Assembly (NCBI GenBank): GCA_038087015.1
Contig: JASBNA010000005.1
Span: forward strand, 1,364,001 to 1,428,000
Source: Cerrena zonata
Lineage: Eukaryota > Basidiomycota > Agaricomycetes > Polyporales > Cerrenaceae
Reading direction: 5' to 3'
DNA: 64,000 nt
Both the position numbers and the translations under genes were made by a program. Of the stretch, positions 29,824-60,655 are shown piece by piece. The number at the start of each line of letters is the position of its first letter. The stretch's first letter is position 1. Under the pieces are notes generated by a model. It was not told the DNA's origin and made no database searches. It saw only the letters and a list, made by a program, of their open reading frames with translations.

Positions 29824-30092
29824 CCAGTAGATTCTTGAGTAGGTGAGAGCGAAGTAAAAAGATCTTTAGGTAGCGCAAAGAGTCCCCCACAATAGAGGCT
29901 AATGTCTACGAGTCTCTCAGGCTGAGAGCGATGTCCAGCGGAGTCCGAACGTTTACCTAGAGGGGAGTAGCACGGCAGAATGGAAATTGACTATCACGAA
30001 AAGCTGGAAGAGACATTGGTGATCCGCTGATATTGATCTACTTTATAATGACGGGGCACATTTAGTAGTACAGGTTCCATAAGAAACGAGTC

Positions 30093-37267: not shown

Positions 37268-40200
37268 CTATGATGAGAGAAGTTTAAGGAGCCTTTCTGG
37301 AACGTCAGGATCTACATCCTCCGACTTCTTCGCGATCCGTGTCAGTCGCTCCTCGTCCTTGTCGAGTCCAGCTCCCTTCAGCATAATGGCAAACAACTCC
37401 AAAGCCTTCGGTGCGTCAATGACAATGTCCGCCAACAAGCTCAGCAATCGGGTTGAAGCCGTCCTCGAATGTCGTTGGTGAACAAACATTCTTGGAAACG
37501 GCACGAGCAAAGAGGTCAGCCACGAGACGCGCATCGGCCTCTTTCTGTTCAATAGCCTCAGAGATCAATTTGTCGATGAGCAAATGACGGTGTTCCACAG
37601 GCAGCTTGGTGAAGTAGACTTCGGCCTCTCCAAGATCGCGAACACTGAAGAACTCCTTGACGTCCATCGCAACTCTCGTCTTGGCATCGTCTACAGACAT
37701 GGACGTCGAAGCAGGCTCAGCAGTGTCGTCTTCCGAGTTGTTGGCAGAAGCAGCTGGGGTATCCTTGCTCTCATCCTTGGGAACACTTCTCGGAAGGAGG
37801 TTGAGCTTCCTGCGTTGCAACGGTGCTTCAGGGGTACCTGCACGATTAAGATCAATATTAAGTTTCCGATTACGTACTAGAGGCGACTTACTGTTAGAGG
37901 GACCACTAGTCTCATTTGCCAACTCTTGAGCTTGGCTCAGCATCGAGAACATATTCGACGAACTTGCTCGAGAAATCGTGTTCTCTCGGCTAGTAGAGGC
38001 CTTGCCAGCATCCTTCTTGACAAAGATGCTGCTAGGACCGAACGACATCGATTGGGTCTTGGCGATCTTACCAAAGTTGGAGAGATCGCCTGCTCGTGCG
38101 GGTCGAGCGGGAGCAGCATTACCAGCGACAGCCCAACCGTCAGGACCGGTCTGTTCGTCTCGGTTGCCTCCTCGTCTTGAACCACCGCGCGACATACTGA
38201 GAGTACGTTGGTATGCGTCTTTCTCGCCAGCAGCTTTCTCCTTAGCAGCCTGATAGAAGAATGAGTAAAAACATTCGATGCGAGCAGGATAGAGAAACTT
38301 ACGGCTTCGTGAACAGCAGCGATGGTGGTAGGAGCAGCGACTTGATTACGAGGAATCCACTTACGATCCCTCATCTCGACGACATCCTAGGATCCCCAAA
38401 ACCATAAATGACATGTTCCCACGATATGCTACGACTCCCACTTACCTGCAACATAAACTGCATACGTGAGTTAACATGAGGACTCTTCCTCAACTCCTTC
38501 ATCCTCGTGAAGTAGACATCCATATGAGCCCGAGCCTTGGCAGTGTCCAGCTGTTGTCCAACGGTGGTCATGAGCTTGCAAAGCGACTCAATCTCCTCTT
38601 CTTCGGGGTTATCGACATTACTGAGAAGTTTCTTGATACACTCGTGCATGATACGTTCTGTAAGCATCTGCAGCTTGAACAGTTCACCGATGAACTTGAC
38701 GAGACCGAGACCTTGACGTTTCGCCTTCTGAGCAGCATAGTACTCGTCCGAATAGAGAGCGCTCTCGTCGTCCTTGTTGCCCTCGGCAGCAGCTTTAGCA
38801 GCCTTATCCTCAGTGGATTTAGTAGCAGCGGCAGCAGCAGTGGCCTCCTTGGCGACCCAACCTCGTTCGAAGTCTTCTTGACATCTGTTAAGGAGGTATT
38901 TACGGAAGAGTTGACCACCAGCGATAGGCTTGCCATCAGAGTTGCGAATACCGTCGTCCTGGACCTTGGTGGAGATGGTCTCCATCATCTTGCGACAGAG
39001 ACGAGCATACATCTCTGACCAAGCGGCCTCGTCAGTGGCCTTCTCGAACACGAGCTTAATGACTTGAATAAGGGTCCTGCCATCCTTCTCGGCCTCCGAC
39101 TTGTTCGCCCATTGAATGATCTGATCTGAAATAGAGTCGAATCTCTCCATGGTCAACTTGTTAAGCAACGCCTTGACTTTACGATCCACGACCTCCGGTG
39201 TGTGTTCATCAACAGGAGCAGCCTTCTTGCCACCCACTGCCGGTTGCCATCGGTTAGCTGATTGCTCGAGAGGAGCGACAGGCTCAAATTGTTGAGCGTT
39301 GGCTGCTTGCTGGGCCTGAGCGAATTGACTGGACTGGCCGGGGTTCTTATCACCTCGTTTCTCGCCTCTCCTGCTACGAGTGCGTTGGCCCATAGGTGTA
39401 CCCGGACCACCTTGACTCGATGAACGAACCATGGGTTGAGGTCGTCCGAAGGGCAGACCAGCCTGACCACCAGACATCGAGGTCGAACGAGAAGCTTGGA
39501 ATCTCTCCTCGCTCGTCATCTTGTTGCCAGGAGTAGAGAACTGACCCATAGTGAAGCCACTTCCCGAACCAGGCTTGCCACTGAATCCGATACCGAGACC
39601 AACAGACGCGGACCGGCTGGGAGGACCCATGTTGACAGAGTTGGGACGACGGCCAGAGGTAGTGCGAGCCATAGGGTGGTTTTCTGAGGGTTGAAGACCA
39701 AGAACGTCGAGATCGGGAAGGTTGTCTGGTTTCTCTTTACAGACCATCATGAATTGGAGGAGGAAGTCCCGGTCGTAACTGTGGACGTGTTATATAGTTA
39801 GCAATCCCGAACGCGACAAAGAACCAGAGAAAGGGGATGGGTAAAGGCCAATACTTAGGCCAATAGGACAAAGTGCCACTCACCGGAATTTACCATCCTT
39901 GGCGTTTGCATTCAACTCGACTTTAGGGCTCTTGACGCCCTCAGGGTAAGTGACACTCTGTAAGTCCTCGATAGCGCGAGCAGTAGATAGAGCAGATGGA
40001 AGTGGTGCAGGAACATGGCCCTTAGCACCAGAGAGATCGAGGGGACCAGGTCGAGGTCGGGGATGGGGAGGAGTGTTGCTAATCGCAGTGTCAATGCGCA
40101 GAGGCGCCTTGTCCACTGGCGATTTCTCCTTTGGCTTCTCCTTTGCCTCGTCCTCCTCAATCTCTCCCTCTTCAGCCTCAGGAATAGGTTCAGGCTTTGA

Positions 40201-42698
40201 CTCGGCGGCAGCACGTTCCTTTGCCGCCTTCTCTTTCTCAGCCTTCTCCTTCTCCTCGGCCTCCTTGCGTATCCTCTCCTTCTCCTCAGCCTCTTTACGA
40301 GCCCGCTCGCGTTCCTCTTCCTCTTTGCGTAACCGCTCCTTCTTCTCCTCTTCCTCCTTGCGCAATCGTTCCTTCTCCTTCTCCTCCTCTTCCCTCTTTA
40401 ACCGCTCCTTTTCTTCCTCCTCCTTGCGTACTCGCTCTTCTTCCTCCTTCCGCTTCTTCTCCTCAGCCTCTTGCTGCTCACGCTTCTTCCGTTCCTCCTC
40501 TTCACGGGATTTCCTCTCCTTCTCCTCAGCAGCCCTCTTTCTCAACCTCTCTTCGTTCTCTTTTCTCCGTTGCTCTGCCTCTAACCGCTTCTGGCGATCC
40601 TGTTCTGACTCTAACCGTATAGGCGGTCGAGCGGGCGATGCGGGTGTTGGAGGAATAGCGAGCTGGGACTTCTTCGAGGCACTCTCCTTGAGCTTATCGA
40701 GGTTAACCTCATGACCACCTTCATCTTTAATGACAACATTCCGTTTGCCCCCCGGGACGAAAGTAGGCGCTTCTGATCGCATACTTCGAGCACCGGGTCC
40801 GGACGAGGATGACGGAGTGGCAGGAGGTGAGCTTATACTGCTCAGACTAGCCGAGTGAATATGTGGTGAGGGAGTACTATGTGGTGGGTGACCAGGCACA
40901 GAGACAGCGGGCGACATAGTAGGCGTGCCAGGCGGATGGAGTTGTTGCTGGGGATTTCTAGGTGAAGACATAGGTAGGCCGGAATGAGGGTGTGGCACGC
41001 CAGGAGACTGTTGGGGCATCATACCCCATGGCTGTTGATAGTACTGGTAGTTAGGATCCATAGGATAACCCTACAAACGAGGCTTTAGTTCGATACTTAG
41101 GCAAGAATTAAGGAGAAATACATACATAATAAGGATTCCACGCTGGAGGGGACATGGTGGGTGGTTGGACGGTAGGAGGTGCCAATCGTGGACTGGACAT
41201 AGCGGGAGGCATTTGCTGGCCTTGAGGGCCTTGGGGAGGCGGTCGGCCATTAACATGGGGACCATTAGGGGCGTTCGCAGGCTGACGAGGGTAGACTACA
41301 GGTGAGCGAGGAGGTCCGGGTGGTCCTCCGTTAGTTCCATTTTGCGTCGGTCGGTACCCAGGGACAAATGTCGAGTAGCCTTGACTGAACTGCGAAGGAT
41401 GTGAGGGAGGTGGTTGCGCGTGTGAATGTGAAGGTCCATGTGGGAGAGGGGCAGATCGTGGAGGAGGGGATGCAACGTCTGGTGTGGATGTTGCTTGAAA
41501 CAGCTTTTTAACGTCAAATTTTGAGGCCGACATAGCAGGCAATGTTGAGGCTGCTTTTGATAGTTGCGGCGCGGACGACTTGCCGTTGACGGGCTGTGCG
41601 GAGGTAGGTGTCGCAGGGACTGTTCCGAACGATTTTGGACCTTCAGTCTTGATGGGTGGGACAGAGGCGGGCGACGAAGATATCGGCGCAGAGTCATCAT
41701 CTATTGAGCCAAAAGTAACAGCAGAGCCTGGTGAAAATTATTAGTAAAATGTCGTGTACAAGACTGCAAGACATCTCAAGACGAGCAAGACCTGTCAAAG
41801 CTATGAAGTACGACCCAGATGGGTGAAATTCAAACTTTGAGACGCAGGGCTCACACAAGCCCGAAAACCCCGCCAAATAGTCGGGAGGACAGAGGGAATT
41901 GGCATGTGGGTTACCACTGTATCCAGCGTGCCTTGAGCAGGCGGCATCAACGTAAACTATTTCGCAGGGTTGAAGAGGCCGCTGTAACACAACAGGTCCA
42001 TCGCCCAAATGACTGCAACAATGTTCCTAAGAAGCCTTGGATCCAGGGTTGCCATTCTCATCGTGATTTTTCGATCCGAAATTGCACAAAAAAGGACCGA
42101 AGAAGGTGACGCACTCGCTGTTAGATGCACAGCCATTGATGTTGAAAGACGGGATGCCACTTGTCGGTGACGGGAAGACGGTGCAGGTGCAAGTTTGTGT
42201 CAACTGCAAAATGCAAAAGACGGCAGACTTGTACACGAGCGAAGACCAGCACCTACACAACGAGGCATCATTGCACAACCGGTCCTTGGAATCCGGACAC
42301 CGTCAATTGCGTAAAGCAACGGGCTCGGTCCTGGTGCATTGATAGCGAAGCCAAGGGGCCACACAAAGGCACCCAAACACCGTCGAGTGAAGGAAAGGCA
42401 AAAACACGAAGGGTAGGATATGTGAAGGAGCAGGAAAAGAAAGCTCACCAGCTTTTACCGTACTCGTAGGACTTCTGACTGATCCAACACCCTCCTTGAA
42501 GGAGACGCCTGAACCAAGAGCACTGGGTCGACGAGAATGAGAGGCAGAAGTTGGCGGGGTGGCATTTGGAGCTGGCGATTGCGATCTAGGCGTGGATGCT
42601 GAAGAAGATGTGCTTTGGGGGGGACCCCTTGACCAAGCTGACTTTTGAGGGAGCTGGGGCACGTTCTTTGAAGCGGAAGCAGCAGAAGATTTGCTCAT
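37268..42698 (-). CDS. TIF4631: Translation initiation factor eIF4G, one frame break near the 3' end
   Basis: The scaffold of the cap-binding complex eIF4F. The ATG at 42698 starts SKSSAASASKNVPQL; the first exon ends at 42449 and a 721-base intron leads to SAVTFGSIDDDSAPISSSPA, a conserved N-terminal block. Pro/Gln-rich sequence and a highly charged Glu/Arg/Lys coiled coil (about 40550-40200) follow. The eIF4E-binding motif YDRDFLL (Y-x4-L-phi) starts right after an intron near 39777. The MIF4G domain, which binds eIF4A and RNA, spans about 39210-38480 (LLNKLTMERFDSISDQII). The C-terminus has an MA3-like domain (VYFTKLPVEHRHLLIDKLI). Near 37437 one extra base shifts the frame: GFNPIAEL is followed out of frame by LADIVIDAPKALELFAIMLKGAGL. 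With correction the stop is at 37268; as given the frame stops at 37416. Confidence 0.92.
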
Positions 42699-43344
42699 TC
42701 TGTGTGGGGGTAGGAAGGAGGATAATCAGTCAAAAATCTTGTCGTCGTCGTTGGCTGTCTGACGCACGAATAATTGCGATGGCGCGGCGATGGATTTGAT
42801 AAGTTTGGTCGCGTGAAGGGTCGGTCGTAAAAGATGACCTGCCTGCAGGCGAACGAATGGTCGCGAGGAGGTGTCTGAAAGAAAAAACGTAGGGTCGGAT
42901 GCTGGAGAAAGCAGCAATCCGCAATGTCCTGGTCGTGGACGAGTGCAGAGAACTCACGCCCGCCAACAAAAAATCATACTCCCCCGCCAGCGGACCCCGG
43001 GAACCCCCCGGCACCGCGTCTGACATCACTGACTCTGCCAGCGTACCACCTGTATGTAATCAATCCTGTTTTGCGCTGTACGTCAAGCTACTGCCCTCGG
43101 CCAATGCAGGGTCTATCGTTATACCCAACCCTAGTAATAATTACTACTGGTTAAGGCGGATGTGTAAAAACAGACGCAAGTTTACTTCGATATGAAACGT
43201 TGCAAGGTACGCATATCAAAACATATGCAATGTACTATCACTGGCAAACAGTCATATTACCAAGTCTGTGCTATCCTTTCACATCCTAAAAACTGCGTCG
43301 AATACATCTAGCACAAATTACAAATATGAAGTGGCATCTTTACC
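42699..43344. other. Intergenic, eIF4G promoter side
   Basis: No gene supported between the eIF4G start and the 3' end of the flavocytochrome copy A. Short open frames only. Confidence 0.5.
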
Positions 43345-45926
43345 CTACAACTTGCTCTTACTGTCCTTTAACCGCGCATGCTGCATCGACTCGTCTACAC
43401 CCCAGTCAGCCAAACGAATAAAAAGCTACCAGACGGTACTCACAATTCAAGCGGAACAAGCTATCCTCAGGAACAGCCACCGTGTGGGTATGGATATTTG
43501 ACGAATCCACCATCTCCCGCACTACCTCCTTGATATTCCGTGCCCCAAGCAACCGCATGTTCATCTCAAATTCGTCCTATAAATTAAATCCGATCAACTT
43601 TTCTGTGCACAATACACGCTAAAAGGGACTTACACGCAGAATAGTCAAGGCTTTATCTACACCCTCTTGACCGTACGACGAAAAGGCGTACAAGAACGGT
43701 CGTCCAATACCAACTGTCAACAATAATCAGCAGATAATCTTTATTCTCCACTACGCGATAAAACATACCCGCAGTAGCACCGAGCGCGATGGCTTTCAAC
43801 ACATCGGTAGCACGTCGGACTCCTCCATCTACAAACACCTGGAATTTCTCATTCGGGAAATGCAGTCCACGCTTCTCGCCCAGCTTTTCCACCACTTCGA
43901 CGAGAACCTCTATACCTGAGCGTGCGAACTCCAGCTGTCGGCCACCATGGTTAGATAGAACCACTCCAGCGCAGCCATGGTCGTATGCTTCCAATGCATC
44001 CTGTGAAACGGTGTCAGGAGGGTACTGTCAGTGCATTGTCCCTATGATACATGATTCGAGTACAACACTTACCTCCCAGCATTGCACACCCTTGAGAATC
44101 AGAGGCACTGCATGTTGTACATCTTTTTAGCATCGGTTATATCACAGTATCAGGGATATCAAACTTACTTTTCGTGATGCTCTTGAACCATTTCAGGTCG
44201 CTCCATTGTAGTCCAGGATCAATAAAGGACTATCAAAACCAAACCGTCAAGTTCTGTTTCTCAATACAATGAATGCCACTTACACTGATTGCACGGGCGG
44301 CACCCTGGGAACGATCCACTTCCCCCTGCTTATCATTCTTACTCACTTCCGCAGGGTCCTCAGCGTCGAATTTCATCCTCATATCCTGAGACACCAAACG
44401 ATGAGTCCTCCCTTCCGGAAACCTATCAAAAAAAAACAAAGATGCCCATACCTTCTCTCGACGTCCCAGTTGCGGGGCATCCACAGTGATGAACAAACCC
44501 TTGATTCCGCGTTGTTCGGCATGTTCAACAAGACGTTTGGTGATTGCTCGGTCCTTGTTCACGTATCTATTTATTGACAATAGCGATTAGTTGAAAAGTC
44601 ACCAGGTCGCTCGTTTGATGGATTTTGTCTTACAGTTGGAGGAATTGGACTTGGCCAGGCGCTGCGTTGTCTAGAATCTCATCAAATGAACATGACGCTA
44701 GTGTCGGTATCTGGGGTACTCGTCAGTCTATGGGTGCAAGGGTAAAGAACCAGGCCCATTGAATCCTTGCAATATACATACCATTTGAATGACGTCATGC
44801 TTTGCTGCAGACCTTGTCAAGTTCAACTCGCCATCTGGATGTCCCAGTTTTCCAAGTGCAGTAGCGGTCTGTATAATACCTCAATTCTCTGCAAAAATAT
44901 CAGGGAGCTCAACCACTCACGATATATATTGGCATACTTGTCTTGTGGCCCAAAATAGACGTCGAAAAGTCGACATTAGTGACATCTCGTAGTATACGGG
45001 GTCGGAACCAAATCCTATCATGAAACGTTAGATCAAACAAAGTGACAATCCAAAATACGATATCACGAACCGATGATAAGCAGCATGGTTTTCACGCAAC
45101 GTAATCTCATCGTCAGCAGCGGAGCTATAATAAGCCCACGCTTTCTCCTGCATGACGCTTCTCGCGATAGCCTGTACATCCCCATCCCCAATTAATAAAC
45201 ACTCGTGAACTCGAAACAATTGAGATTCACCTCGAAATCATGCAAGTTGAGAATCTCGGATAACGAAGGTCGAGCTTTGATACGCTCTTGTCTGGCTTTC
45301 TCTTCGTCTGTGACCTTGACTTCTACTTTCTGGACAGTACCCATGTCAACGGGTCCAAGGCTAGAATTTAGTTTCAAAGAGGATTAGTGAATGCATACGT
45401 CAAGATATTGGGGGAAATACGTACTGTTTCTCGGGTGCGAGATTGTCAGTGATGGCATTTGGGGGATGTATCGGGTCGTATTCTGCACTGTACTATTTCT
45501 GAGTGCCACATTCACAGAGGGGTAGTAATAACAAGACCCTCACGTTGCATCTTTACCAGCGTACTTCAAGATAATCTTGCTCCCTCCTGTAGTTCAAGTT
45601 CGCATTCAGTGAAATGCACAAGTCATATGTTGATTCAGAGTGCCAACATACCAGGGTGGTCTATATGATGCTATAGTCAGATTGAGAGTCAAAGTTAACT
45701 TCAGGCCAAACTCACCATCCAAGAATTCTGTGACATCATAAACGTTCCCTGAGGTGATCGAAGTCAGTACACCAACCACAAGTTAGAACTACACATCGAC
45801 ACAGGCAAAATTTCCTGCTCATTAACAACAATTAACAAAAATGTGCTTACCATGTACAACAATCCAACAGCTCTCCCTCGAGTTGTGTTTCGAAACTTCC
45901 TGTCCTGAGAGTGTTCCTTTCGTCAT
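43345..45926 (-). CDS. Flavocytochrome b2 family oxidase/dehydrogenase, copy A (glyoxylate or lactate), SKL tail
   Basis: The ATG at 45926 (TKGTLSGQEVSKHNSRESCW) begins directly with a cytochrome b5 domain: heme ligands in DDHPGGSKIILKYAGKDAT and YDPIHPP. The FMN-binding alpha-hydroxy-acid oxidase domain follows: KAWAYYSSAADDEITLREN, TALGKLGHPDGE, FITVDAPQLGRREKD (active-site Asp), PLILKG (Lys), VVLSNHGGRQL (His and Arg) and FVDGGVRRATDVLKAI. About a dozen short introns. The last exon reads HARLKDSKSKL-stop, a canonical peroxisomal signal, and there is no mitochondrial presequence, unlike yeast Cyb2. The family oxidises L-lactate, glycolate or glyoxylate, reducing cytochrome c. The fungal glyoxylate dehydrogenase of Fomitopsis palustris belongs to this family and makes oxalate, so that role is likely here, though not proven. 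Confidence 0.9.
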
Positions 45927-46001
45927 GTCGTCGTAATCTGTATCCAAGAAGTCAAGCTGCAAAATCTAAGAGATAGTACTGAGAATGTTGGTGAACTGGT
46001 T

Positions 46002-46067
46002 AGTGAACTTGTCACGGTAATGTTCACTGGCAGCTCAGGTTCAGGTTCAGGCCCCTCCACAGTGAAC
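46002..46067. promoter_or_regulatory. Three AGTGAAC heptamers upstream of flavocytochrome copy A
   Basis: AGTGAAC at 46002-46008, its reverse complement GTTCACT at 46022-46028 and AGTGAAC again at 46061-46067 lie 76-141 bases upstream of the copy A ATG. The first two form an inverted repeat with 13 bases between. A factor-binding role is a guess from spacing and position. Confidence 0.35.
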
Positions 46068-46476
46068 TCCAGAACACGGGGAAATTGCTTGCCCCGCATT
46101 GGTCCGGAAACCTTGCGGCCCGCTGGGCCGGGATACGGAGGACGGGATGCGGGGGTCCGATGTTGGTCCGACGGCTATTCTTGTACAGACTCGGATTCGC
46201 CAAGGCCCACCAGGAGGGTAAAGTCAAGATAAAGAGATGATATTGCGATGCAACTGTTTCTACATGGTACAGTGATTGAGACAATGCGGTTGTAAGGGAG
46301 ACAAATGAAGATGCGAAGACTCAAAGCGACCATGATTGTGGATAGAGAGAGGGATACAGAAATGAAGGCGAGATCCAAGAAAACATCTAGAAAATGTGAA
46401 TGCAAAATAAATTCCACCAATGCATAATCATAATTCGATAGAGGGAAGAATAAAAAGAGGAGAAGAGCCTTAAGGC

Positions 46477-47941
46477 TTAGACGACTTCGAAGGCCTTTCC
46501 ACCAGCCCTGGCATCGAGCTCGATAACTTCATGTAAGCCTGGAAGATTGATAAGCAATAATCCCCACGGGTGTAATATCGATGTGAAACTTACCCATGAC
46601 CTCGAAGAAAGCCTTGGGATCCATTCCCCGAGCAGAGCTGAAGTCCGTTCCGGTCTTCTTCAATGATTGCATAGCGGCACGGATTCCGTGTACGGCAGCC
46701 ACGCAAGATACCAAAGAGAAGACTATTGGGTGTGACGATCAGAACTTCCGAAATTGAATAGGATCATTAGTGAGAAGACTCACTGATAATCTTAGCACCC
46801 ATTTCTTCAGCTTCCTGGCACGTGAAGGAAGGAGTGAGACCACCAGAGATGACGTTAACAAGAACCTGATATCAATTACACATGAGAATCTAATCATTTT
46901 CGCAGATATGAGCGTGAGCAGATTACTTACAGGCTTGGGAGCAAGAGCAGCAACAGTTGACTTCAAGAGGTCGGCAGTTTTGACACCCTCGATGAAGCAT
47001 ACATCGGCACCAGCATCAGCAGCGAGTTTCAGACGAGTGACTGCCTCTTCCATGCCGAGAACTTGGGCAGAGTCGGTACGACCGATGATAACGAAATCTG
47101 AGCCTCCTGGAATAGAGTCTCGGGCAATGACTGCAGCACGGATACGAGTGAGGAACTCCTCCCGTGAGACGACTTGCTTGCCCATAAGGTGACCGCAACG
47201 CTTGGTTTGTACTTGATCTTCGATGTGAAGACCAGCAACACCGGAACGTGCGTACTGGGTAACCGTTCGTGCAACCATAGCCGGTCCACCGAAACTACAA
47301 CCGCTCTATCAGACTTTGAATTGAATATGGTTGACAAAAATACATACCCAGTGTCCGCATCAGCGATAACAGGAACAGTGGGGTCTAGACTGCAGACCAT
47401 CTGGGCGCTCTGAACGAAGTCGTTGAGAGTGGCAATTGCAAGATCTGGCATGCCAAGACGAGAAGCAGTTGTAGCAGCTCCGCTAAAGGAAATTCATAAG
47501 TAAGATTGTGCTTTTGATTTTAATGTGTTAAAGTTACCTTTGGTACAAGCAGTCGAAGCCAGCCTCAAGCGCACATCGTGCACTGATACCATCACAAATA
47601 CCAGGGGCAACGACAATACCTGGTCGTGCTAGCATCTGGCGGAGCCGAGTCGCGGGGTTAGGCGACAAGGGGCCCTCAAGGTAGTTCTTGGGGTCAAGGC
47701 GGGCGTTGTAGTAGACATCTGGCTTCGCACTCTCGTTCACAGGAGTGTCAGGAGGAGTGTCAGCAGAGGGAGGGGTAGAGACAACTGTCGACGAAGGAAC
47801 AGTCTCAGGGGTAGAGCCGTAGAGGTCGAGACCGGGCATTTTCAATGAGAAATAATGATAGAGGAGGTTGAGGAATTTGTTAGTGAACCGACGGAGGCGG
47901 GATACTCGGGGAGTTGATTTAACAGTGTCCTTGGAGGCCAT
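46477..47941 (-). CDS. Isocitrate lyase/PEP mutase superfamily enzyme (oxaloacetate acetylhydrolase-like)
   Basis: The ATG at 47941 gives a basic, Leu/Arg-rich leader of 34 residues before a second possible start at 47839 (PGLDLYGSTPETV); the leader could be a targeting sequence. The enzyme core reads RQMLARPGIVVAPGICDGIS, DPTVPVIADADTGF, HIEDQVQTKRCGHLMGKQ (catalytic KRCGH loop), DFVIIGRTDSAQVLGMEEA, GADVCFIEGVKT and a short C-terminus ending FEVV. The family includes methylisocitrate lyase, oxaloacetate acetylhydrolase (oxaloacetate to oxalate plus acetate) and related C-C lyases. The gating cysteine of KRCGH is kept. Exactly which reaction is run cannot be read from the sequence. Its place between two glyoxylate-dehydrogenase-like genes favours oxaloacetate acetylhydrolase. 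Confidence 0.8.
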
Positions 47942-50122
47942 GCTTTTTAAAGGAAGGGCAAAGACCTGTCACGCCAGAAATATCTCGGCGACGAAGGGGA
48001 GGGAGCTGGGGTTTCTGAAAGATCCGCCGAGCTGTCGGAACAAAATGGGCAGTTGAAAAGGCAAATCGCACAAGCACGAGAACAGGCCCATGAGGGATAA
48101 CGGCGCTGACAGAACAACAGCGGGCCACTGAGTACAGTAAGAAAATACATGGGTCGGAGATGTGAGAGGAGTTGGTGCGGCGTTAGAGGAGTCAAGCAAT
48201 CCATACACCCACATTAGTGAATTTTAGGGTAACATAGATTGGATGGCCTGCTTCTCGAAGCGTTACTGTTAGGCTTAGCATACCACCTATCAGAGATGCA
48301 AGTCTTGGCAAGAACGCAAAGGAAATCCCCACACTTCTGTAATACATACGTGTGGAAGGAGTTAGAAGCTGATTGGCGTGCCCTGCGATCAGTGGGATTT
48401 TCAGCGCGGTGCGGTCAGACTAATGAAAATTACATTCAATACCGCTGAATGGTAAATGGTAGTTTGAAACCGTGAACATATTGCTCCAAGCTCTGAAGTT
48501 CATTGGGTATTGATGCGAGACCACTGAAACAAGATTCCCGCGTAATTGAGACTTGTGGGTCCACATCACGTATAATGATGCCGGCATATTAAATCTGCGG
48601 GGAAAGCCAAGCCAGAGCCTCGACTTACGACAACTAATAAAGCTGTACATGTGGTGTATGTCCCATCCCGGTGGCGTCTTGAACCTTTCTGTGTTTGGTG
48701 AGTGTCAATTTTCAGGAGCTGCCAAGCATTTGTGTCAGCTTGGGCAAAAGCCCGAGTAGAATAGTCGTCTTCTATAGCCAAGTCATTTTCACGTACTTGA
48801 ACCGCATCATAACACATGAGGTTGCTTCTATAGATGACGCCAGGAACGAAGTTTCATAATCTGGAGAACTTGCCAAGAGTCAGTGTTCTCAAGAAGGAAA
48901 ACGGCCAGAATCAAAGTTTCTCTTGGGTCTTTGTGTCGCACAAGATTAGAGGTAGAGACTTTCCACATACGGTGTAGTCTAGGGATGATCTGCGGTACGT
49001 TTGAAACTCGAAAGCCAAGCCAAGCCAACACCTTCGTGGCGTCTTTGCTGGTGTTTATTGGATTACCATATTTGGAGGGGCGATCGATCATTTGTGTTAC
49101 GCTTTCAGCTCTTGGCATCCTACTTTACAACATCAACCGGAACCAAACTGCAAAATGGTATTCAATCGACCATGTGTTTGATTCAAGTCGTACTATCTAA
49201 CGATATTCTATGCTTCATTCGTTTCCTTTAAGAAATAAAGGCACACTTCAGATCTCGTAACGTGTCCGGTGCAACGCCTTCTTCTACTGTTCTAGTACAT
49301 CCTTTACACCGCAGAGCGTGATTCTCTGTCATGCAAATTTCCTTCTGAGCCCTTCCAGAGCTATCCAGACAAGTCAGATAGTCCCTGAATCGGATGGCAG
49401 TCGCTGTACAAGTGGGTCAACCTCGGCCACTAAGGTCACCCTTTTTCACTGTTATCCCCACAGCGGGGGGTAGATTGGACCTGCGGCGGCGTCAAGTACT
49501 TCCTACATTCCGATGACACCATGTCACTCTCCCTTGTCCCGGTGATGGCCCTCGACAGCTTTCCCAGGCGTTCTCACTCCTCGGAGTTAGAGAGGTATGG
49601 TTGAATGTCCAGTACGTGGCTGTAAGTGGTCCCACTGATGGAAAAGCTACTTGGGCAATTACTTTCCAAATAAGCTTCTATCCCCCTGGGCATCCCAATT
49701 CAGTCTTTCTCACAAGATATGGTGTGTCCGAATTTCTCCGGTCTCCTTGGTCAATGCGAAGGTCATCTTGGTCGTTGATTCTAAGGCGTTACTGCGGTAA
49801 TTCAGAGCCATCAGTCATGGTGGATATTTTATCATTCTTCGTCGCTAATCTTTGTAGATAGTAAGGACATTAGAACTATCCTCTCTATCCCCGAAGGTAT
49901 TCACGCCTATGCCACCCCCTTTGTCCCCGTCGAACTGACGTCGCACTCCCGTAGGTGTCCCTTCATGGTTAACGTTTGTGTCGAACTTGTGTAGTCGGCG
50001 TATCGTTGGCATTCCGCCAATTCCGCGCTTCTCAGTTGAAAAGAGAGGGCTGGGATTGGCGGAACACTACACGTCTCGTCATCCCTTCATTGACATTGGA
50101 CAGGGCCACCACTAACACCAAC
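47942..50122. other. Long divergent intergenic region (2.2 kb)
   Basis: Separates the isocitrate-lyase-family gene (left) from flavocytochrome copy B (right), which point away from each other. No gene is supported; open frames at 48883-49231 and 49601-49861 lack motifs. It is long for this window and may hold the regulatory sites of both genes. Confidence 0.5.
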
Positions 50123-52342
50123 ATGTCGAACGTTAACGTACTTACAGGCCCTGAGGTCGCTGCACACAGTAGCAGAGATAGTTGCTGGATTATCGTTCAT
50201 GGTGGGTACCATTTACTCAGGAACGCTAGGGCAGAACCTAACTTCCTTTATCCCGCGATCGATAGGGAAGGTGTATGATGTCACAGATTTTCTTGATGGT
50301 ACGTTCATCACGATTGTTCCATTCTTGGACAAATAGTGAATTTTTGTACAGAACACCCTGGTGGCAGCAAGATTATCTTGAAATATGCTGGAAAGGATGC
50401 TACGTACGTACCTAGGTCTACCGGTTTGATTTCTCCTACTCAGTTTCCTATTCCAGTGAGGCATACGATCCAATTCATCCGCCTGATGCGATTACTACCA
50501 ATCTTCCTGTCGAGAAGCAGTAAGCAATTTTTGCAGTATAATACCTAACGTTTACTCACGACATATGCAGCCTAGGTGCGATCGATGTTAGCACAGTAGC
50601 CAAGGTGGTGAAGGAGGTCACGGAGGAGGAGAAACGGCGACAAGCCCTCATGGAAGCACGACCACCCCTTGAGAATGTGATTAACTTGCATGACTTTGAA
50701 CAAGTTGCAAGAATCGTACTTCCGGAGAAAGCTTGGGTACGTACCATTGCCAAAACCTTCAACCGATAGATATTTAACCGCAACTCTTTGAACAGGCATA
50801 TTATTCCTCGGCTTCCGACGATGAGATTACCATTCGTGAAAACCGACTGGCATACCAACGGTACATATTAGAATTCTTCTCCTTCCATTCTTCGTGTTTA
50901 ACCTGTCATTGTGATACTTAGAGTGTGGTTCCGACCCCGTATCCTCCGGGATGTTTCTTCTGTGGATTGGTCAACGACCATTCTCGGTCAAAAGTCTAGT
51001 CTTCCGGTATACATTGTAAGTATCTTTCGGGTTTTCGTAGGTTTCATTTTGAATGGTCTGTTTCAGTCTGCCACTGCTTTGGGAAAACTCGGCCATCCGG
51101 ATGGTGAACTCTGTTTGACCAGAGCCGCCGCCAACCATGGTGTAATCCAAATGGTATGTCAACGCTGTTGTTCTTGAAAATAAAAATCAACTTTGTTCCA
51201 GATTGCAACGCTGGCATCATGTTCATTTGACGATATCGTAGACGCTGCTGGACCCGGGCAGAATTTCTTCGTACAATTGTTAGTCCGGCAATTACGTTAT
51301 TCGTATCTTACGACGCGCTTACTCTCGATGTTCATTTCTGCAGATATGTCAACCGGGATCGTGAAATCACCAGGAAGTATGTCCAACATGCCGAGAAGCG
51401 AGGGGTCAAGGGCCTCTTCATCACCGTTGATGCTCCTCAGCTCGGCCGTCGCGAGAAGGACATGCGAATGAAACAAGTAGACGACGGAGCGGGTGCTGAA
51501 GTCCAAAAGGGTCATGAGGTCAAGAAAGATCAGGGTGTTGCTCGGGCTATCAGCGTAAGCTTTTATCACTGGCTGAAGTACGGAGACAAGGTTCAATTTC
51601 GTTTCAAATAGTCCTTCATCGATCCGAGCTTGTCGTGGAAAGACATTCCCTGGTTCTTAAGTATCACAAAGAGTAAGTATCTTTACCTTCTTATCATTCC
51701 CGCTTGGATCGAGTGCTGATGAATGATTATCACTCAGTGCCCATCATTCTCAAGGGAATCGCCACTGCCGAGGATGCAATCCTTGCCTATGAAGCCGGTG
51801 TCCAAGGCATTGTCCTTTCCAACCACGGTGGCCGACAGCTTGATACTGCGCGTTCCGGATTAGAGGTCCTCATAGAAGTCACGGCTGCTCTCCGTTCCAG
51901 GGGTTACTTCCCAGATCCCAAGTTTGAGATCTATGTTGACGGTGGAGTCCGAAGAGCAAGCGATGTTCTCAAAGCACTGGCTTTGGGTGCTAAAGCGGTC
52001 GGTGTTGGAAGGCCATTCTTGTATGCATTCTGCAGCTACGGCCAAGCGGGTGTCGAGAAGGCGATACAGATATTCAGAGACGAGTTCGAGATGAACATGC
52101 GTCTGTTGGGTGCGAGGACACTGGATGAGCTCGTACCGGAGATGGTAGATGCTAGTGCTTTGACGAACCATGTTGTCTTGACACCACAGGATAACCTCTT
52201 CCAGAATACCTGTAAGTCTGATGTTTTCCTTCTTCATAGCCTCATCTTCCGTCCCGGCCTACTTTTGGAATTCTTTGCTGATGAACTTATTCTGATAGAT
52301 CAACCGCTCACCTCTGCCCAGTTCAAAGAGAGCAAGCTATAG
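50123..52342 (+). CDS. Flavocytochrome b2 family oxidase/dehydrogenase, copy B (glyoxylate or lactate), SKL tail
   Basis: The ATG at 50123 opens SNVNVLTGPEVAAHSSRDSCW, immediately a cytochrome b5 domain with HPGGSKIILKYAGKDAT and YDPIHPP heme histidines. The FMN domain carries KAWAYYSSASDDEITIREN, TALGKLGHPDGE, QLYVNRDREIT, FITVDAPQLGRREKD, PIILKG, IVLSNHGGRQL and YVDGGVRRASDVLKAL, matching the catalytic Asp, Lys, His and Arg of yeast flavocytochrome b2. After a last intron the C-terminus is SAQFKESKL-stop (TAG at 52340). That is again a type 1 peroxisomal signal, and there is no mitochondrial presequence. Its intron layout parallels copy A, so the pair arose by duplication with inversion. 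Substrate is probably glyoxylate or L-lactate. Confidence 0.9.
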
Positions 52343-55300: not shown

Positions 55301-55575
55301 TGTTAATATTCGGAGTCACAGGTAACGGAAGTAGTTCTAACTAGGCCGGCAAACCGTGTAACTGTGTCTTCGCAAAGTTTGAGGACAAGCCGTATTACAG
55401 ATCCAGATACGCCATGCTCCGCATTTTCCAAAGGGCCGTATCCATCACTTTCTCTATTGTCATGACTGTCTCGGACCTGGCTAGATTCGAGTGTGAACTT
55501 CTCCGCATTCGGCTTGCGTATATATACGTCTGATATCTCTGCGCCGTCTCCCCAAATACATCGCTTATACCCACC
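52343..55575. other. Large intergenic stretch (3.2 kb), no gene seen
   Basis: Open frames of 60-96 codons occur on both strands (for example 53866-54156 minus) but none has recognisable motifs or splice partners. This is the longest gene-free stretch of the window. It could hold decayed mobile-element sequence, a lncRNA, or an unrecognised orphan gene. Confidence 0.45.
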
Positions 55576-57919
55576 ATGGCCCACCCTCTCAGTCGGTATC
55601 GTCTTCGTCTCTTCAGTGACTTCGTTCGCATTGCTCTCGTTCCCTTGTTGTTGTTTATGCTATGTTTCTCCGTGTTCAATACACGCCCAACCCTCCCAAC
55701 CGCCCCGCTGTATCTACCATTCGCCTTCCTTTGTGCGCTCGCCCGCAATTTTTACTCCGACTTTCAACATCGCCGAGATGCCACGAGCAGAGGTGCTCGC
55801 CTGCCACCTCAGGTAATAGGACGCTGGCCAGGCAACCTCGATATTTTTATCAAAAGACGCAAAGCTGCCCGGTCTGGTTACCTTGCAGAATATTATCGTG
55901 AACTATTTCATGAATATCACGCCACCACTCTCAACCTCAAGCTTCTCTGGATTGATATGGTTCGTACTAAAAGTCTCTATAATTCCTTCGCAGACGCTAA
56001 CACCTGCGGCGTCCCCGTGGCAATACTCGGACATTCAGTACATCTCCATGGACCAAGAACATATAAAGTACATTACCGCCACCGGATTTGAGCACTTTTG
56101 GAAGGGGCGTCTCATCAAGGAGATGGTGTAAGTTTCGCTTCACATTCTGAAACACGCTAAAGTCCGTGGTCGTCGAGACTAAGCTCATGGAACTCTTCCA
56201 GAGAACCATTTCTAGGTGGTGGGATATTCAATCGAGATGATCAGGTACGTTATGCTCGCCACCGGGACTCACCATGACGATCAAAGCTCACTAAACTGTG
56301 ATCTCGTCCACCGTTTATAGGAATGGAAAGACGTATGTAACTTTGCAATTCCGTGATGGGTACCGGCCCTCGACTCACACCGAATCGCCTACTGTGCAGC
56401 ACCGCTCTCTCGCGCGACCGTTCTTCTCGCGCGATCGTGTTCGAGATTTCGAATTGTTTGAGCATTACACAAATACTACAATTTCGATCATATCTTCCCT
56501 GTCGTCTGTAGGCAAATCCGTCGAAATCCAAGACCTTCTCACTCGTTTCACCCTCGACGCCGCATCCGAAGCGCTTTTCGGCACCGAGCTCAACAGTCTG
56601 CGTGGTGCGTTACCGGTGCCAGGCCAAACCGTTCGTGGTCGCCATGAGGTCGTGCCGTCAGACCAATTCAATGCCTTTGCACAGGCCTTCGACGGTTGCC
56701 AAGATGTATACATGGGGCGTGTTACAAAGGGATATTTTTGGCCCATTACGCAACTTACTCGCGATGATATGACGCCTCATGTGAAAGTGATCGAGGCTTG
56801 CGTGCAACCGCTAGTTGCTCGTTCCTTTCAACGCAAAGCTGAGCGCAAATCTAATGGTCTCGGCCCAGAGGAAAAAGATGTTTTCCTCGACCATCTTGCC
56901 GATCAAACAAACGGTATGTTATATCCGCACTATCAACTGCGTTGTAAGCCAGATCGCTCATTGTCTCCCTCGTTTCGTACAGATCCTAAAGTAATCCAGG
57001 ATCAACTTCTGAACATTCTTCTTGCCGGTCGCGATACAACAGCATGTCTTCTGACATTCATCATCTATTTCATGTCCCTTCACCCCAACATTGCCCGCCG
57101 CATGCGTTCAGAAGTGTTGGAGCAAGTCGGCTCTGGCACTCCAACATTTGAAGATATCAAATCTTTGCGATATGGTTAGTCTAACTCGTTTTCTTCGTGA
57201 GGCTCACTGCCTCTCCACATGGCATACTAAACTAACCGTTTCATCTCTTCACACACTGTTATTCAGTTCGAGCCGTCATTAACGAAACGCTCCGCCTATT
57301 CCCACCTGTGCCTCACAACATCCGGGAAACTCGCGACCAAGCCGTTGTCTTTCCTAGGTCTGACGTTACCTTTGATTTTGGAGACAACACTCCCATCTAC
57401 ATGCCGGCTAACACGCCTATCATGTTCATTCGCTTCCTTACACATCGCAATCAGGCACTCTGGGGCCCGGATGCGGAGGTGTTTGATCCTGACAGGTGGT
57501 TGGATAGTCGTCTGGCGAGATTCGTCGATAATCCGATGATGTACACACCGTTCAACGCTGGACCAAGAGTTGTGAGTCATCATAACCCCGATACGCACGT
57601 AGTGTGAAGCTAACTGTCTATGACAGTGCATCGGACAGAATTATTCGCTCAATCAAACGACATACTTCCTTGTTCGTCTGCTCCAACGATTTGATTCGTT
57701 CTCGTTAGCACCAGAATGTCAACCTGAGGGATCAATCCCCCCACCGGAGTGGAAACGAGGGCGGGGCAGACAGGCCATTGAGCGTATCATGCCCACTTCT
57801 TCTGTTTCCACATACGTTAGGGTACGTTGAAGATAAGCTTATCAAATATTCGGTTGTTGATCTCTTGGTTGCAGGGTGGCTTGTGGGTCAACTTCAATGC
57901 TGCTGCGAAAGGGATATAA
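55576..57919 (+). CDS. Cytochrome P450, CYP63/CYP52-like (fatty-acid/alkane hydroxylase type)
   Basis: The ATG at 55576 opens a membrane anchor (ALVPLLLFMLCFSVF). Conserved blocks then follow in order: RSLARPFFSRDRVRDFELFEHY (C-helix region), FTLDAASEALFGTELNSL, QLLNILLAGRDTTACLLTF (I-helix with A-G-R-D-T-T), NETLRLFPPVPHNIRE (E-x-x-R), FDPDRWLDSR, and FNAGPRV-CIGQ (heme-binding Cys, split by an intron). The last exon, GGLWVNFNAAAKGI, ends at TAA 57917, as in the CYP63 group of basidiomycetes, close to the CYP52 alkane/fatty-acid omega-hydroxylases. At least eight exons. All splice sites seen are GT-AG and no frame break was found. Confidence 0.9.
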
Positions 57920-58749: not shown

Positions 58750-60655
58750 ATGGCAAATAGCTTAGAGGTAAGGACCCTCACATTTCAAGCCGATAATTGG
58801 TTGATATTTCAAAAAGTCGCTGGCAGTAATCATAGAGAATGATCCCACGTCCCAGAATGCCAACGAGGCATTTGGCTTGATCAACAAAGTGATCAATAAA
58901 CAACCATTCAAACTCGAACAGGCAAAGATGGAACGTGTTGTCGGTCTATTTCTACGTCAATGGACTCCTCAAATGCTAGTACAGACAGAAAAGACCAAGC
59001 GAATCGGTCTAAACCAATTAAGACTCCAACATAGTTGGCTTTGTCTTGGGAGTCTAGCTGAACATCCGAGTCATACGGACTCTTCTAGACACCATGGCCA
59101 ATCATGCGGCCCATGTCGACATTCTCAAGCGATGGCTACCCCTTCTGGTAGAGATTCATTGTGAGACCGAGGAGGTTTTCAGCACTCGTCACTTTTATAT
59201 CAACCTTGCATTATGGTTACTCTTCCGGCTTACTACGGATACCACTCCGCTCCAAGCTCTCCTCATCAGCGACCCCCGTCTCCTCAATACTACTCTTCGT
59301 ATATGGAGATACGTAACACTGAACAGGACGTTATTCACACGGGAAGAATATGAAGAGAGGATGAGAGGATGCGCTTTCACAGTCACCGCATATCTGGACA
59401 GTTTCGTATCTCAGCCTCAGGACGTATGGGAAAGATATACGTTAAAACCAGAGGGGTCTGTCGGCTTGACTGCCATCGAGCTAATAGACGACGCTCTCCT
59501 ACATTTCGATGACATTGGCAGGGATCATGTTGATTTTGGTGTATCAGTCATAATGCACCTTCTAAACCGCGAGGACCTCGATGGATGTCATACCTCAGGC
59601 CTCAGTACTCAGTTCTCAAGTGTATCGTTGGGAAGATACCAGAGATTTTATGGAAGATTGTGGAGTTTTCTCCTTCGTTAATCACGAATGTGATTGCACG
59701 GCAGAAGCATATTTCTACACTGACTAGGTGTATTACATGTTTTTGCCAATTGCTTGGTTTCTTCGATGGTGTTACATGGGCATTGCAACTCATTCGAGAA
59801 TGCATGCTACAAGTGTTACTCCGTTGCGACCCCTGGTTATGCGTTTTAGGAGAACAGGAGCCTATGGACCTCTTTGAACTCCTCACTGAAATCTTCCCTC
59901 GGTATCTCAAGTACCGGTCGGTTTTAGAAGCGACACAAAAAGAACTCGCCGCGATTGCCCAAGCCGGTTTGGACGATAATATCAACCAGCGTGGTTTGAA
60001 AAGGTTATGGGCTCGTTTTAAACGCCTAGTCGAAGATCAATATTCTATCCTGGACCAGATTCGAAGTAACGCCGTCCATCTCTACCAGATGTGTAATTAT
60101 CCTGAGGTATGGCATGATGTACTTCAATAAAACCACCAATATCTTAAACACACTTTTCCCCTAACAGTGTCGCTCCGTCCGCATTACTGGAGAGAAATTC
60201 AAACGATGCGCTGGCTGTGGAGCTGTGTACTATTGTACCCCAGGTTGTCAACGGATGCATTGGAACCATGCCGGGCAACCACACCGATCGAAATGTGGAA
60301 CTGAATATATTCGTGGGCTCTATTTCAAACTTGAACCAGCTAGATTTTCATCATTGACATCGTCGCTTCTAGGACATACATTCCAGTCGGAAATTTCACA
60401 ACGAGACGTAAAATACTTAAAACGGATCGCGCAATACCAGCTCAAATGCCGGAGCATAGTGAGATGCTTCATCGTTCTGTGCTTTTGCTTGTGGTCATGG
60501 AGTTGGACTTGAGTGAAACGGAGATCAAATCCAGCCTAGAAATCGGTACCGGGAATCCGGGTATTCTTGTGATTATATTGGTACCAAGAGGAAGCCTCAT
60601 AGAGTCATTTGCTTTTGTAGGATTTGTGCAGGAGCTTGTACCAGCATTACCTTGA
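58750..60655 (+). pseudogene. MYND zinc-finger protein, family copy C (disrupted)
   Basis: The 18-base first exon (ATG at 58750, MANSLE) and the exon-2 start match copy A exactly in structure. The helical region (LFLRQWT, LLNTTLRIWRYV, TAIELIDDALLHF, CITCFCQLLGFFDGVTWALQLIRE) and the MYND finger (RCAGCGAVYYCTPGCQRMHW, HRSKC) are readable. Compared with copy A it has three frame-breaking changes: a loss of about 20 bases near 59115 (after SCGPC), a gain of about 14 bases near 59600 (after CHTS), and a loss of about 13 bases near 60445 (before MPEHS). The splice donor after EYIRG has also changed from GT to GG. These are multi-base events unlike simple sequencing error, so this copy is a pseudogene. 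Confidence 0.85.

What the first reader, a model, noticed from the sequence alone, without database searches (positions are those of the whole stretch)
43345..52342. Candidate oxalate/glyoxylate cluster: two flavocytochromes around an isocitrate-lyase-family enzyme
Seen: two paralogous cytochrome b5-FMN enzymes (43345-45926 minus, 50123-52342 plus) flank one PEP mutase/isocitrate lyase superfamily gene (46477-47941 minus). Known: in brown-rot fungi glyoxylate dehydrogenase is a flavocytochrome b2 relative that oxidises glyoxylate to oxalate, and oxaloacetate acetylhydrolase, a PEP mutase/isocitrate lyase family member, makes oxalate plus acetate. Inference: the three genes may supply oxalate by two routes, one via glyoxylate in the peroxisome, one from oxaloacetate in the cytosol or mitochondrion.
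Basis: partly seen in the sequence, partly recalled or inferred. Interest (0 to 1): 0.75.

Follow-up and report, generated by a model that had tools for sequence, protein, structure and literature searches.

The report
Conserved oxalate gene trio in mushrooms
Three neighbouring genes in a wood-decay fungus most likely encode the two known ways of making oxalic acid, in two cell compartments, and related mushrooms often keep the same genes together, which suggests they work as a unit.

Summary
The window is Cerrena zonata (Polyporales). The genes splice cleanly: A (45926-43345, minus, 506 aa) and C (50123-52342, plus, 501 aa) are cytochrome b5-FMN flavocytochromes ending in SKL (peroxisomal signal); B (47941-46477, minus) is an oxaloacetate acetylhydrolase (OAH) type enzyme. 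B has serine at 331 (121 of 121 rows) where dimethylmalate lyase has proline, and no peroxisomal signal. The genome's isocitrate lyase also ends in SKL, so glyoxylate would be made where A and C reside. Purified FpGLOXDH and FpOAH of Fomitopsis palustris are active in print.

The main gain is linkage elsewhere. Ten searches of an open-access library found no paper naming this cluster. The OAH/C divergent promoter is dense in PacC-type sites (suggestive only).

Limits: active-site residues cannot separate glyoxylate from L-lactate oxidation; which flavocytochrome is the main glyoxylate dehydrogenase is open; published expression data are mixed.

The parts
43345..45926 (-). Gene A: peroxisomal-type flavocytochrome (b5 + FMN), 18 exons, 506 aa, ends SKL; A-type glyoxylate/L-2-hydroxyacid dehydrogenase
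   Evidence: Splice model; Pfam; Cyb2 1ltd/1fcb best PDB match, 522 bits; A clade 100* in quick tree
43348..43356 (-). PTS1-type C-terminus SKL of gene A
   Evidence: strict [SAC][KRH][LM] C-terminus in 71 of 120 listed A-search proteins
46477..47941 (-). Gene B: oxaloacetate acetylhydrolase-type enzyme, 6 exons, 391 aa from 47941 or 357 aa from Met35 at 47839 (preferred)
   Evidence: PDB 3fa3 305 bits, 3lye 296 bits; Ser331 and catalytic residues; in the own-genome search 6 of 8 matches are B's own exons, the other 2 (42-43% identical over about 90 residues) are isocitrate lyase-like
47942..50122 (.). Divergent 2181-bp intergenic region between OAH and gene C; candidate shared promoter
   Evidence: consecutive locus tags 005240/005241
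48304..49116 (.). Nine GCCARG (PacC/Rim101-type, recalled) sites; the densest stretch of this motif in the window
   Evidence: 9 against 1.97 expected, 0 of 1000 dinucleotide shuffles reach 9
50123..52342 (+). Gene C: peroxisomal-type flavocytochrome, 13 exons, 501 aa, ends SKL; many relatives are deposited as glyoxylate dehydrogenase
   Evidence: Pfam; Cyb2 499 bits; C clade 99*; names
52331..52339 (+). PTS1-type C-terminus SKL of gene C
   Evidence: strict PTS1 in 76 of 108 proteins new in the C search

Best explanation
The locus is an oxalate-production gene cluster that has been kept together in much of the Agaricomycetes. Gene B (OAH) hydrolyses oxaloacetate to oxalate and acetate, most likely in the cytosol. 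Genes A and C, products of a duplication older than the orders sampled, are peroxisomal flavocytochromes that oxidise glyoxylate (delivered in the same compartment by a PTS1-bearing isocitrate lyase) to oxalate, passing electrons from FMN to the b5 haem and on to an acceptor that is not known. Shown here: genes, domains, catalytic residues, targeting signals, linkage by contig and gene number. Inferred: substrates in this species, co-regulation, the pH-responsive promoter.
For: Splice models and domains. B: 52-54% to OAH and dimethylmalate lyase structures; Ser331 in 121 of 121 rows where OAH has Ser and DMML has Pro; the nine catalytic residues compared are kept; [quoted passage not shown] A T. 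versicolor protein whose accession number is next to that of a glyoxylate dehydrogenase is 88.1% identical to FpOAH (PMC10512323, section part read). FpGLOXDH oxidises glyoxylate and FpOAH cleaves oxaloacetate (PMC9485241, section read). SKL on A, C and the genome's isocitrate lyase; strict PTS1 on 0 of 120 OAH relatives. Linkage: OAH-A 19 of 23, OAH-C 20 of 24, A-C 23 of 37 assemblies, expected 0.8, 0.6, 0.9; without Cerrena 18 of 22, 19 of 23, 22 of 36. OAH and GLX change together in T. versicolor (-1.88 and -2.37 log2) and Rhodonia placenta (both among five up-regulated genes, numbers 17_43 and 17_38, PMC10512373, section read).
Against: The named Cyb2 catalytic and pocket residues are kept in A and C, so sequence does not exclude L-lactate or glycolate as substrate. 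B is as close to dimethylmalate lyase (53.6%) as to Cryphonectria OAH (52.1%). In 22 of 72 assemblies with at least two kinds listed no two share a contig; ten of the 22 are Mycena. Gloeophyllum trabeum OAH and GLX respond differently on cedar, and a review says that high nitrogen favours its cytosolic and low nitrogen its peroxisomal route (PMC11045627, passages): not one unit there. In Fibroporia two OAH genes rise in wood wafers, none of the oxalate-synthesis genes in ground wood. In heavily furfurylated wood the R. placenta OAH response is delayed. Cytochrome c, the acceptor named for FpGLOXDH, is not a peroxisomal protein (recalled).
Confidence: 0.8

Rival explanations
1. A and C are L-lactate (or general L-2-hydroxyacid) cytochrome oxidoreductases, and the locus is a peroxisomal hydroxyacid-oxidation locus with an OAH beside it by descent only.
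For: The Cyb2 active-site residues named, including Ala198, Leu230 and Ile326, are kept in A and C; UniRef names many relatives L-lactate dehydrogenase (cytochrome); yeast Cyb2 uses both substrates.
Against: No N-terminal extension before the b5 domain and a peroxisomal C-terminus; FpGLOXDH, about 50% similar to Cyb2 as A and C are, oxidises glyoxylate; repeated linkage to OAH.
Confidence: 0.12
2. A and C have split the work: one oxidises glycolate or L-lactate (feeding glyoxylate or pyruvate), the other glyoxylate, so the locus holds a two-step peroxisomal route plus OAH.
For: Two clades kept apart over the orders sampled with 8 fixed differences, and position 228, two before Leu230, is Pro in all 120 A rows but Pro or Ala in C; G. 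trabeum has two GLX genes of which one is induced.
Against: None of the 8 fixed differences is one of the named pocket residues; no activity data for A-type proteins were seen.
Confidence: 0.2
3. B is a 2,3-dimethylmalate lyase or another C-C lyase of the superfamily, and the link to oxalate is accidental.
For: 3fa3 (DMML) scores slightly above 3lye (OAH): 305 against 296 bits, 53.6% against 52.1%.
Against: Serine, not proline, at position 331 in 121 of 121 rows; FpOAH, 88.1% identical to the T. versicolor protein, cleaves oxaloacetate.
Confidence: 0.06
4. The linkage is only slow decay of an ancestral tandem arrangement, without selection for co-inheritance.
For: A and C are duplicates, which are born adjacent; flanking genes were not tested as controls; the linkage has been lost in Mycena and others.
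Against: It does not explain why the unrelated OAH gene lies between them in the two species whose three numbers are consecutive (Cerrena, Hermanssonia) or why it is kept across orders.
Confidence: 0.25

Closest known systems
Oxaloacetate acetylhydrolase FpOAH (Fomitopsis palustris), and Cryphonectria parasitica OAH (PDB 3lye)
   Same: Superfamily domain, catalytic motif KRCGH, metal ligands, serine at 331; FpOAH is active on oxaloacetate
   Different: The 121 Agaricomycete-type rows have their own fixed residues (C116, Q134, S135, V306) and a conserved N-terminal stretch YYNxRLDPKNYLEGPLS that lies before the stretch matched to 3lye and 3fa3
Glyoxylate dehydrogenase FpGLOXDH (F. palustris)
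   Same: Flavocytochrome family; 50.3% similar to Cyb2, as A and C are; many C-search proteins are deposited under that name
   Different: The FpGLOXDH sequence was not at hand; whether it is A-type or C-type was not settled
Yeast flavocytochrome b2, Cyb2 (PDB 1fcb, 1kbi)
   Same: Same two-domain plan, 52% (A) and 51% (C) identity, catalytic residues kept
   Different: Cyb2 is mitochondrial (recalled); A and C start at the b5 domain and end in SKL
Conserved gene pairs of wood-decay fungi, such as pyranose 2-oxidase with pyranosone dehydratase
   Same: Adjacent metabolic genes kept in several wood decay fungi (PMC4256170, passage)
   Different: Here two parallel routes in two compartments would give the same product

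Membership tests
Oxaloacetate acetylhydrolase (EC 3.7.1.1) | PEP mutase/isocitrate lyase superfamily domain with catalytic residues | tested here: met
   Pfam 138 bits; D176, D178, E205, K211, C213, H215, R252, E282, N305 kept in 121 of 121 rows
Oxaloacetate acetylhydrolase (EC 3.7.1.1) | Active-site serine associated with OAH activity | tested here: met
   Ser331, aligned with Ser in 3lye (and in petal death protein 1zlp) and Pro in 3fa3; 121 of 121 rows. That this is the marker serine rests on the alignment and recall; the association itself is in PMC8224569 (passage)
Oxaloacetate acetylhydrolase (EC 3.7.1.1) | Hydrolyses oxaloacetate to oxalate and acetate | not testable with these tools
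   Needs an assay; FpOAH does so
2-Methylisocitrate lyase | Highest similarity to PrpB-type lyases and equivalog score above cut-off | tested here: not met
   36% identity to 1mum; TIGR02317 226 bits against cut-off 354
2,3-Dimethylmalate lyase | Proline at the position of the OAH serine | tested here: not met
   Ser331
Fungal glyoxylate dehydrogenase (flavocytochrome) | b5 plus FMN dehydrogenase domains with L-2-hydroxyacid catalytic residues | tested here: met
Fungal glyoxylate dehydrogenase (flavocytochrome) | Peroxisomal targeting signal (PTS1) | tested here: met
   SKL C-terminus on A and C; signal read by eye, location not measured
Fungal glyoxylate dehydrogenase (flavocytochrome) | Oxidises glyoxylate to oxalate | not testable with these tools
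   FpGLOXDH does; no assay of A or C
Mitochondrial L-lactate dehydrogenase Cyb2 | N-terminal mitochondrial presequence | tested here: not met
   A and C begin directly at the b5 domain, HPGG at residues 38 and 39; read by eye, no targeting predictor was run
Conserved metabolic gene cluster | Linkage in other species beyond chance | tested here: met
Conserved metabolic gene cluster | Coordinated expression | tested here: inconclusive
   Literature only: together in T. versicolor and R. placenta, apart in G. trabeum and Fibroporia

The most novel reading that the evidence does not exclude
An ancient oxalate 'supergene' of the Agaricomycetes: OAH set between two duplicated peroxisomal flavocytochromes, kept together across at least four orders, divided between two compartments, and switched as a unit by ambient pH through PacC/Rim101 sites in the OAH/C divergent promoter, with the two flavocytochromes specialised for successive or alternative 2-hydroxyacids.
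Probability: 0.22. Interest if true: 0.8.

Novelty: new member of a known kind. Interest (0 to 1): 0.52.

Why it matters
Oxalate is tied to iron chelation and pH in wood decay, and to mineral weathering in soil. If the two routes are inherited as one locus, then the relative flux through the cytosolic and peroxisomal routes, so far argued from enzyme and transcript data, can be tested by deleting or re-regulating one locus. The linkage also gives a way to find the oxalate genes among isocitrate-lyase-family and FMN-dehydrogenase paralogues, many of which are deposited as 'L-lactate dehydrogenase (cytochrome)', 'PEP/pyruvate domain-containing' or 'hypothetical' protein. It also sharpens an open question: what takes the electrons from a cytochrome b5 flavoenzyme inside a peroxisome.

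Tried and rejected
Substrate from residues: Cyb2 positions were compared in 120 A-type and 103 C-type rows; the named pocket residues do not separate the groups, so this could not decide between glyoxylate and lactate. Two listed positions do not follow Cyb2: 228 (Ser in Cyb2, Pro in A, Pro or Ala in C), and 97, which falls in a gap. Assigning FpGLOXDH to A or C by its quoted 50.3% similarity to Cyb2: five A-type and five C-type proteins of Fomitopsis and its kin give 50-51% and 46-52%, so it does not discriminate. Structure prediction was not used: solved structures at over 50% identity exist. NCBIfam gave no equivalog above cut-off for B and A, the two proteins sent.

Promoter motifs: six patterns were tried in one script (one was a placeholder of no meaning): PacC 9 against 1.8, CCAAT 9 against 4.4 (12 of 300 shuffles reach it), CreA 7 against 6.8, STRE 4 against 3.7, GATA 5 against 4.8, placeholder 0. 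Only PacC was followed up. The PacC consensus is recalled; no paper seen here ties it to OAH in a basidiomycete, and the A. niger paper searched has no mention of PacC.

Linkage table: 102 of 120 OAH rows, 101 of 120 A rows and 96 of the 108 proteins new in the C search were typed by hand. Left out: rows without a species name, two rows without a contig (P0220, P0305), and P0340, P0341, P0342 and P0344 (Calocera, Tulasnella, Clavulina), taken as not of C type. The tables show only the best 120 hits of each search, so the assemblies are a sample biased to relatives of Cerrena; some rows stand for clusters with more than one contig or member. Chance was computed for a 40 Mb genome, assemblies taken as independent. 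JGI-type protein numbers need not be positional: of ten assemblies with such numbers for two kinds, two are close (Agaricus, Phanerochaete carnosa) and eight are not (Hypholoma, Galerina, Hebeloma, Gelatoporia, Plicaturopsis, Paxillus rubicundulus, Macrolepiota, Collybiopsis), though seven of these eight share the contig length; they are not counted as number evidence.

Literature: 10 searches used. Ten papers hold both 'oxaloacetate acetylhydrolase' and 'glyoxylate dehydrogenase'; I saw passages of all ten, and a section or part of one in three of them. None of what I saw mentions adjacency; a term search for adjacency words in three of them found none in this sense. No whole text was read and no supplementary file. 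The OAH structure paper is not held; the original FpOAH and GLOXDH papers were not seen.
Full report
What is there. The window lies on contig C5 (2,072,551 bases) of a 55.5 Mb fungal assembly. B and C match Cerrena zonata proteins QCA50_005240 and QCA50_005241 at 100%, on a contig of the same length; A is QCA50_005239. Cerrena is in Polyporales; that it is a white-rot fungus is recalled. The three gene models were spliced by hand and close without a stop: A 506 aa with 17 introns, B 391 aa with 5, C 501 aa with 12, all introns GT-AG. The deposited model of A starts inside the gene and misses the b5 domain. Consecutive locus tags imply that no gene is annotated between the three.

The middle enzyme. 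B matches A. niger dimethylmalate lyase (3fa3, 305 bits; source organism recalled) and Cryphonectria OAH (3lye, 296 bits; recalled) far better than petal death protein (167) or methylisocitrate lyases (157 and less). Identities are 53.6, 52.1, 36.1 and 36.2% (to 3fa3, 3lye, 1zlp and the methylisocitrate lyase 1mum). At position 331 B has serine, as OAH and petal death protein do, where dimethylmalate lyase and methylisocitrate lyase have proline; all 121 rows (B and its 120 best relatives, one of them B's own deposited copy) have serine. [quoted passage not shown] The relatives are one close group, so 121 of 121 is not 121 independent tests. FpOAH of F. palustris is active on oxaloacetate (Km 0.42 mM; PMC9485241, section), and a T. 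versicolor protein is 88.1% identical to it over 86% (PMC10512323); a review says that FpOAH is expressed well above FpGLOXDH and has the main role (PMC12053173, passage). In the own-genome search with B, six of eight matches are B's own exons and two are isocitrate lyase-like places, one of them on a contig of low G+C; the Pfam search gave two more weak matches below cut-off. Start: the 120 relatives have a median length of 357 aa, 71 of 121 rows have Met at Met35 and 58 of 121 begin MPG, which favours Met35 (47839). 0 of 120 relatives end in a strict PTS1.

The flavocytochromes. A and C are 67% identical to each other and 52 and 51% to yeast Cyb2. The haem ligands and the named catalytic and pocket residues (Tyr143, Ala198, Leu230, Tyr254, Asp282, Ile326, Lys349, His373, Arg376; roles and numbers recalled, letters checked) are kept in nearly all of 120 A-type and 103 C-type rows; position 228, two before Leu230, is not (Ser in Cyb2, Pro in A, Pro or Ala in C). 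This is evidence of activity on a 2-hydroxyacid, not of which one: yeast Cyb2 itself oxidises glyoxylate about as efficiently as FpGLOXDH (Vmax/Km 0.15 and 0.17, duplicate assays). Location does discriminate. Both proteins start at the b5 domain and end in SKL; strict PTS1 ends are found in 71 of 120 A-search proteins and 76 of the 108 new in the C search, many others being near-variants. The genome's isocitrate lyase on contig C7 (PDB 1dqu, 486 bits; Pfam ICL 548 bits) also ends in SKL, so glyoxylate would arise in the same organelle. In a quick tree of 66 rows, C-type is one clade of 27 (99*) and A-type another (30 rows with two unnamed rows, 100*), with Calocera, Tulasnella and Clavulina proteins near A at 88, not starred (species). 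Both clades hold members of several orders, so the duplication is older than those orders.

Linkage. The homologue tables give contig lengths and, for some assemblies, running gene numbers. Among assemblies listed for two kinds, OAH and A lie on a contig of the same length in 19 of 23 (0.8 expected from contig size in a 40 Mb genome), OAH and C in 20 of 24 (0.6), A and C in 23 of 37 (0.9). Without Cerrena: 18 of 22, 19 of 23, 22 of 36; with contigs of 500 kb or less only: 8 of 10, 7 of 10, 13 of 16, against 0.05-0.07 expected; by genus, without Cerrena: 18 of 22, 19 of 23, 22 of 27. In all six assemblies listed for all three, the three share a contig: Cerrena, Steccherinum, Hermanssonia, Pluteus, Imleria and Dentipellis. 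Orders: Cerrena Polyporales, Imleria Boletales, Dentipellis Russulales, Pluteus Agaricales (recalled); Plicaturopsis (Amylocorticiales) shares OAH and A on a 4.1 Mb contig, which says little. In all, 50 of 72 assemblies with two or more kinds listed have at least two on one contig. Running locus tags agree in 12 of 14 assemblies where two kinds carry them: the numbers lie within five of each other in Cerrena, Hermanssonia, Steccherinum, Antrodiella, Taiwanofungus, Psilocybe cf. subviscida, Panaeolus cyanescens, Fibroporia, Meripilus, Agrocybe chaxingu, Leucocoprinus and Ganoderma, and far apart in Stygiomarasmius and Pleurotus djamor. A-OAH-C are 005239-005240-005241 in Cerrena and g4478-g4477-g4476 in Hermanssonia; Fibroporia has A at 01255 and C at 01257, one number between. 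The 22 assemblies without a shared contig are ten Mycena, two of Lentinula lateritia, Collybiopsis, Moniliophthora, Stygiomarasmius, Dendrothele, Phlegmacium, Peniophora, Vararia, Auriscalpium, Fomitopsis serialis and Pleurotus djamor. No Mycena listed for two kinds has the linkage. The assemblies are related, so the very small probabilities printed should not be read literally; the excess is plain without them.

Expression in print. In T. versicolor the OAH (XM_008045015) and glyoxylate dehydrogenase (XM_008045016), neighbours in accession number, both fall in wood culture (-1.88 and -2.37 log2) while malate synthase rises (PMC10512323); that neighbouring numbers mean neighbouring genes is inference. 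In R. placenta FPRL280, glyoxylate dehydrogenase 17_38 and OAH 17_43 are among five genes reported up between decay phases, which I read as the oxidative phase (PMC10512373), and another study has both up at the first harvest in unmodified and lightly modified wood, OAH being delayed in heavily modified wood (PMC6606883, passages). Against: in G. trabeum OAH rises on cellulose and falls on cedar while one GLX rises on both (PMC7735643, passages), nitrogen favours one route or the other (PMC11045627, passages), and in Fibroporia two OAH genes rise in wafers but no oxalate-synthesis gene in ground wood (PMC10608345, passages). None of these passages mentions adjacency.

Promoter. OAH and C are transcribed apart from a 2181-bp intergenic region. 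It holds nine GCCARG sites between 48304 and 49116; shuffles with the same dinucleotides average 1.97 and none of 1000 reaches nine (eight when overlaps are merged: none of 500); of 619 sliding stretches of that length, those with eight or more all lie at 46701-48701 (starts). The whole window has 59 against 48.5 expected. GCCARG is the PacC site (recalled); oxalate is an acid, so control by ambient pH would make sense, but this is one of six patterns tried, post hoc, in one species.

How it would work. Cytosolic OAH turns oxaloacetate into oxalate and acetate; peroxisomal isocitrate lyase makes glyoxylate, which A and C oxidise as the hydrate through FMN and b5 haem to oxalate. The electron acceptor in the peroxisome is unknown; cytochrome c is named for FpGLOXDH but is not peroxisomal (recalled). 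Why two flavocytochromes are kept is open.

Verdict. The enzymes are known kinds; the cluster, as far as ten searches of an open-access library show, has not been described. In checking, the number of orders for the bold reading went from five to four and the nitrogen result was added; its odds were lowered slightly.

Noticed in passing
Own genome G000, contigs C49, C33, C165, C139, C27, C15: Loci of 31-45% G+C on these contigs carry long reading frames with no or few introns (flavocytochrome, isocitrate lyase, myosin head), unlike the 46-49% G+C, intron-rich loci on C2, C5 and C7: probable yeast contamination of the 55.5 Mb assembly.
   Followed up: partly
43345-45926: The deposited model of gene A (QCA50_005239, 426 aa) lacks the cytochrome b5 domain that the DNA encodes.
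   Followed up: yes
G000:C2:871604-873365 (L034): A further flavocytochrome b2-like gene (b5 part 53%, FMN part 37% identical to A) with changes near the pocket positions (SGAALAKLG, SSNAS): another substrate likely.
   Followed up: partly
Agrocybe pediades D9613_000894 and 000899, Galerina marginata, Crucibulum laeve: Several OAH rows with one contig length, so OAH has probably multiplied locally in some Agaricales.
   Followed up: no
28374-32028 (-) and 59058-60130 (+): Frames with the same recurring motifs (ILQRWLPL or DILKRWLPL, CITCFCQ) on both sides of the cluster: probably copies of one unnamed gene family.
   Followed up: no
55534-57900: Cytochrome P450 gene downstream of gene C; an eIF4G-type gene (MIF4G domain) at about 37416-42725 beside gene A.
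   Followed up: no
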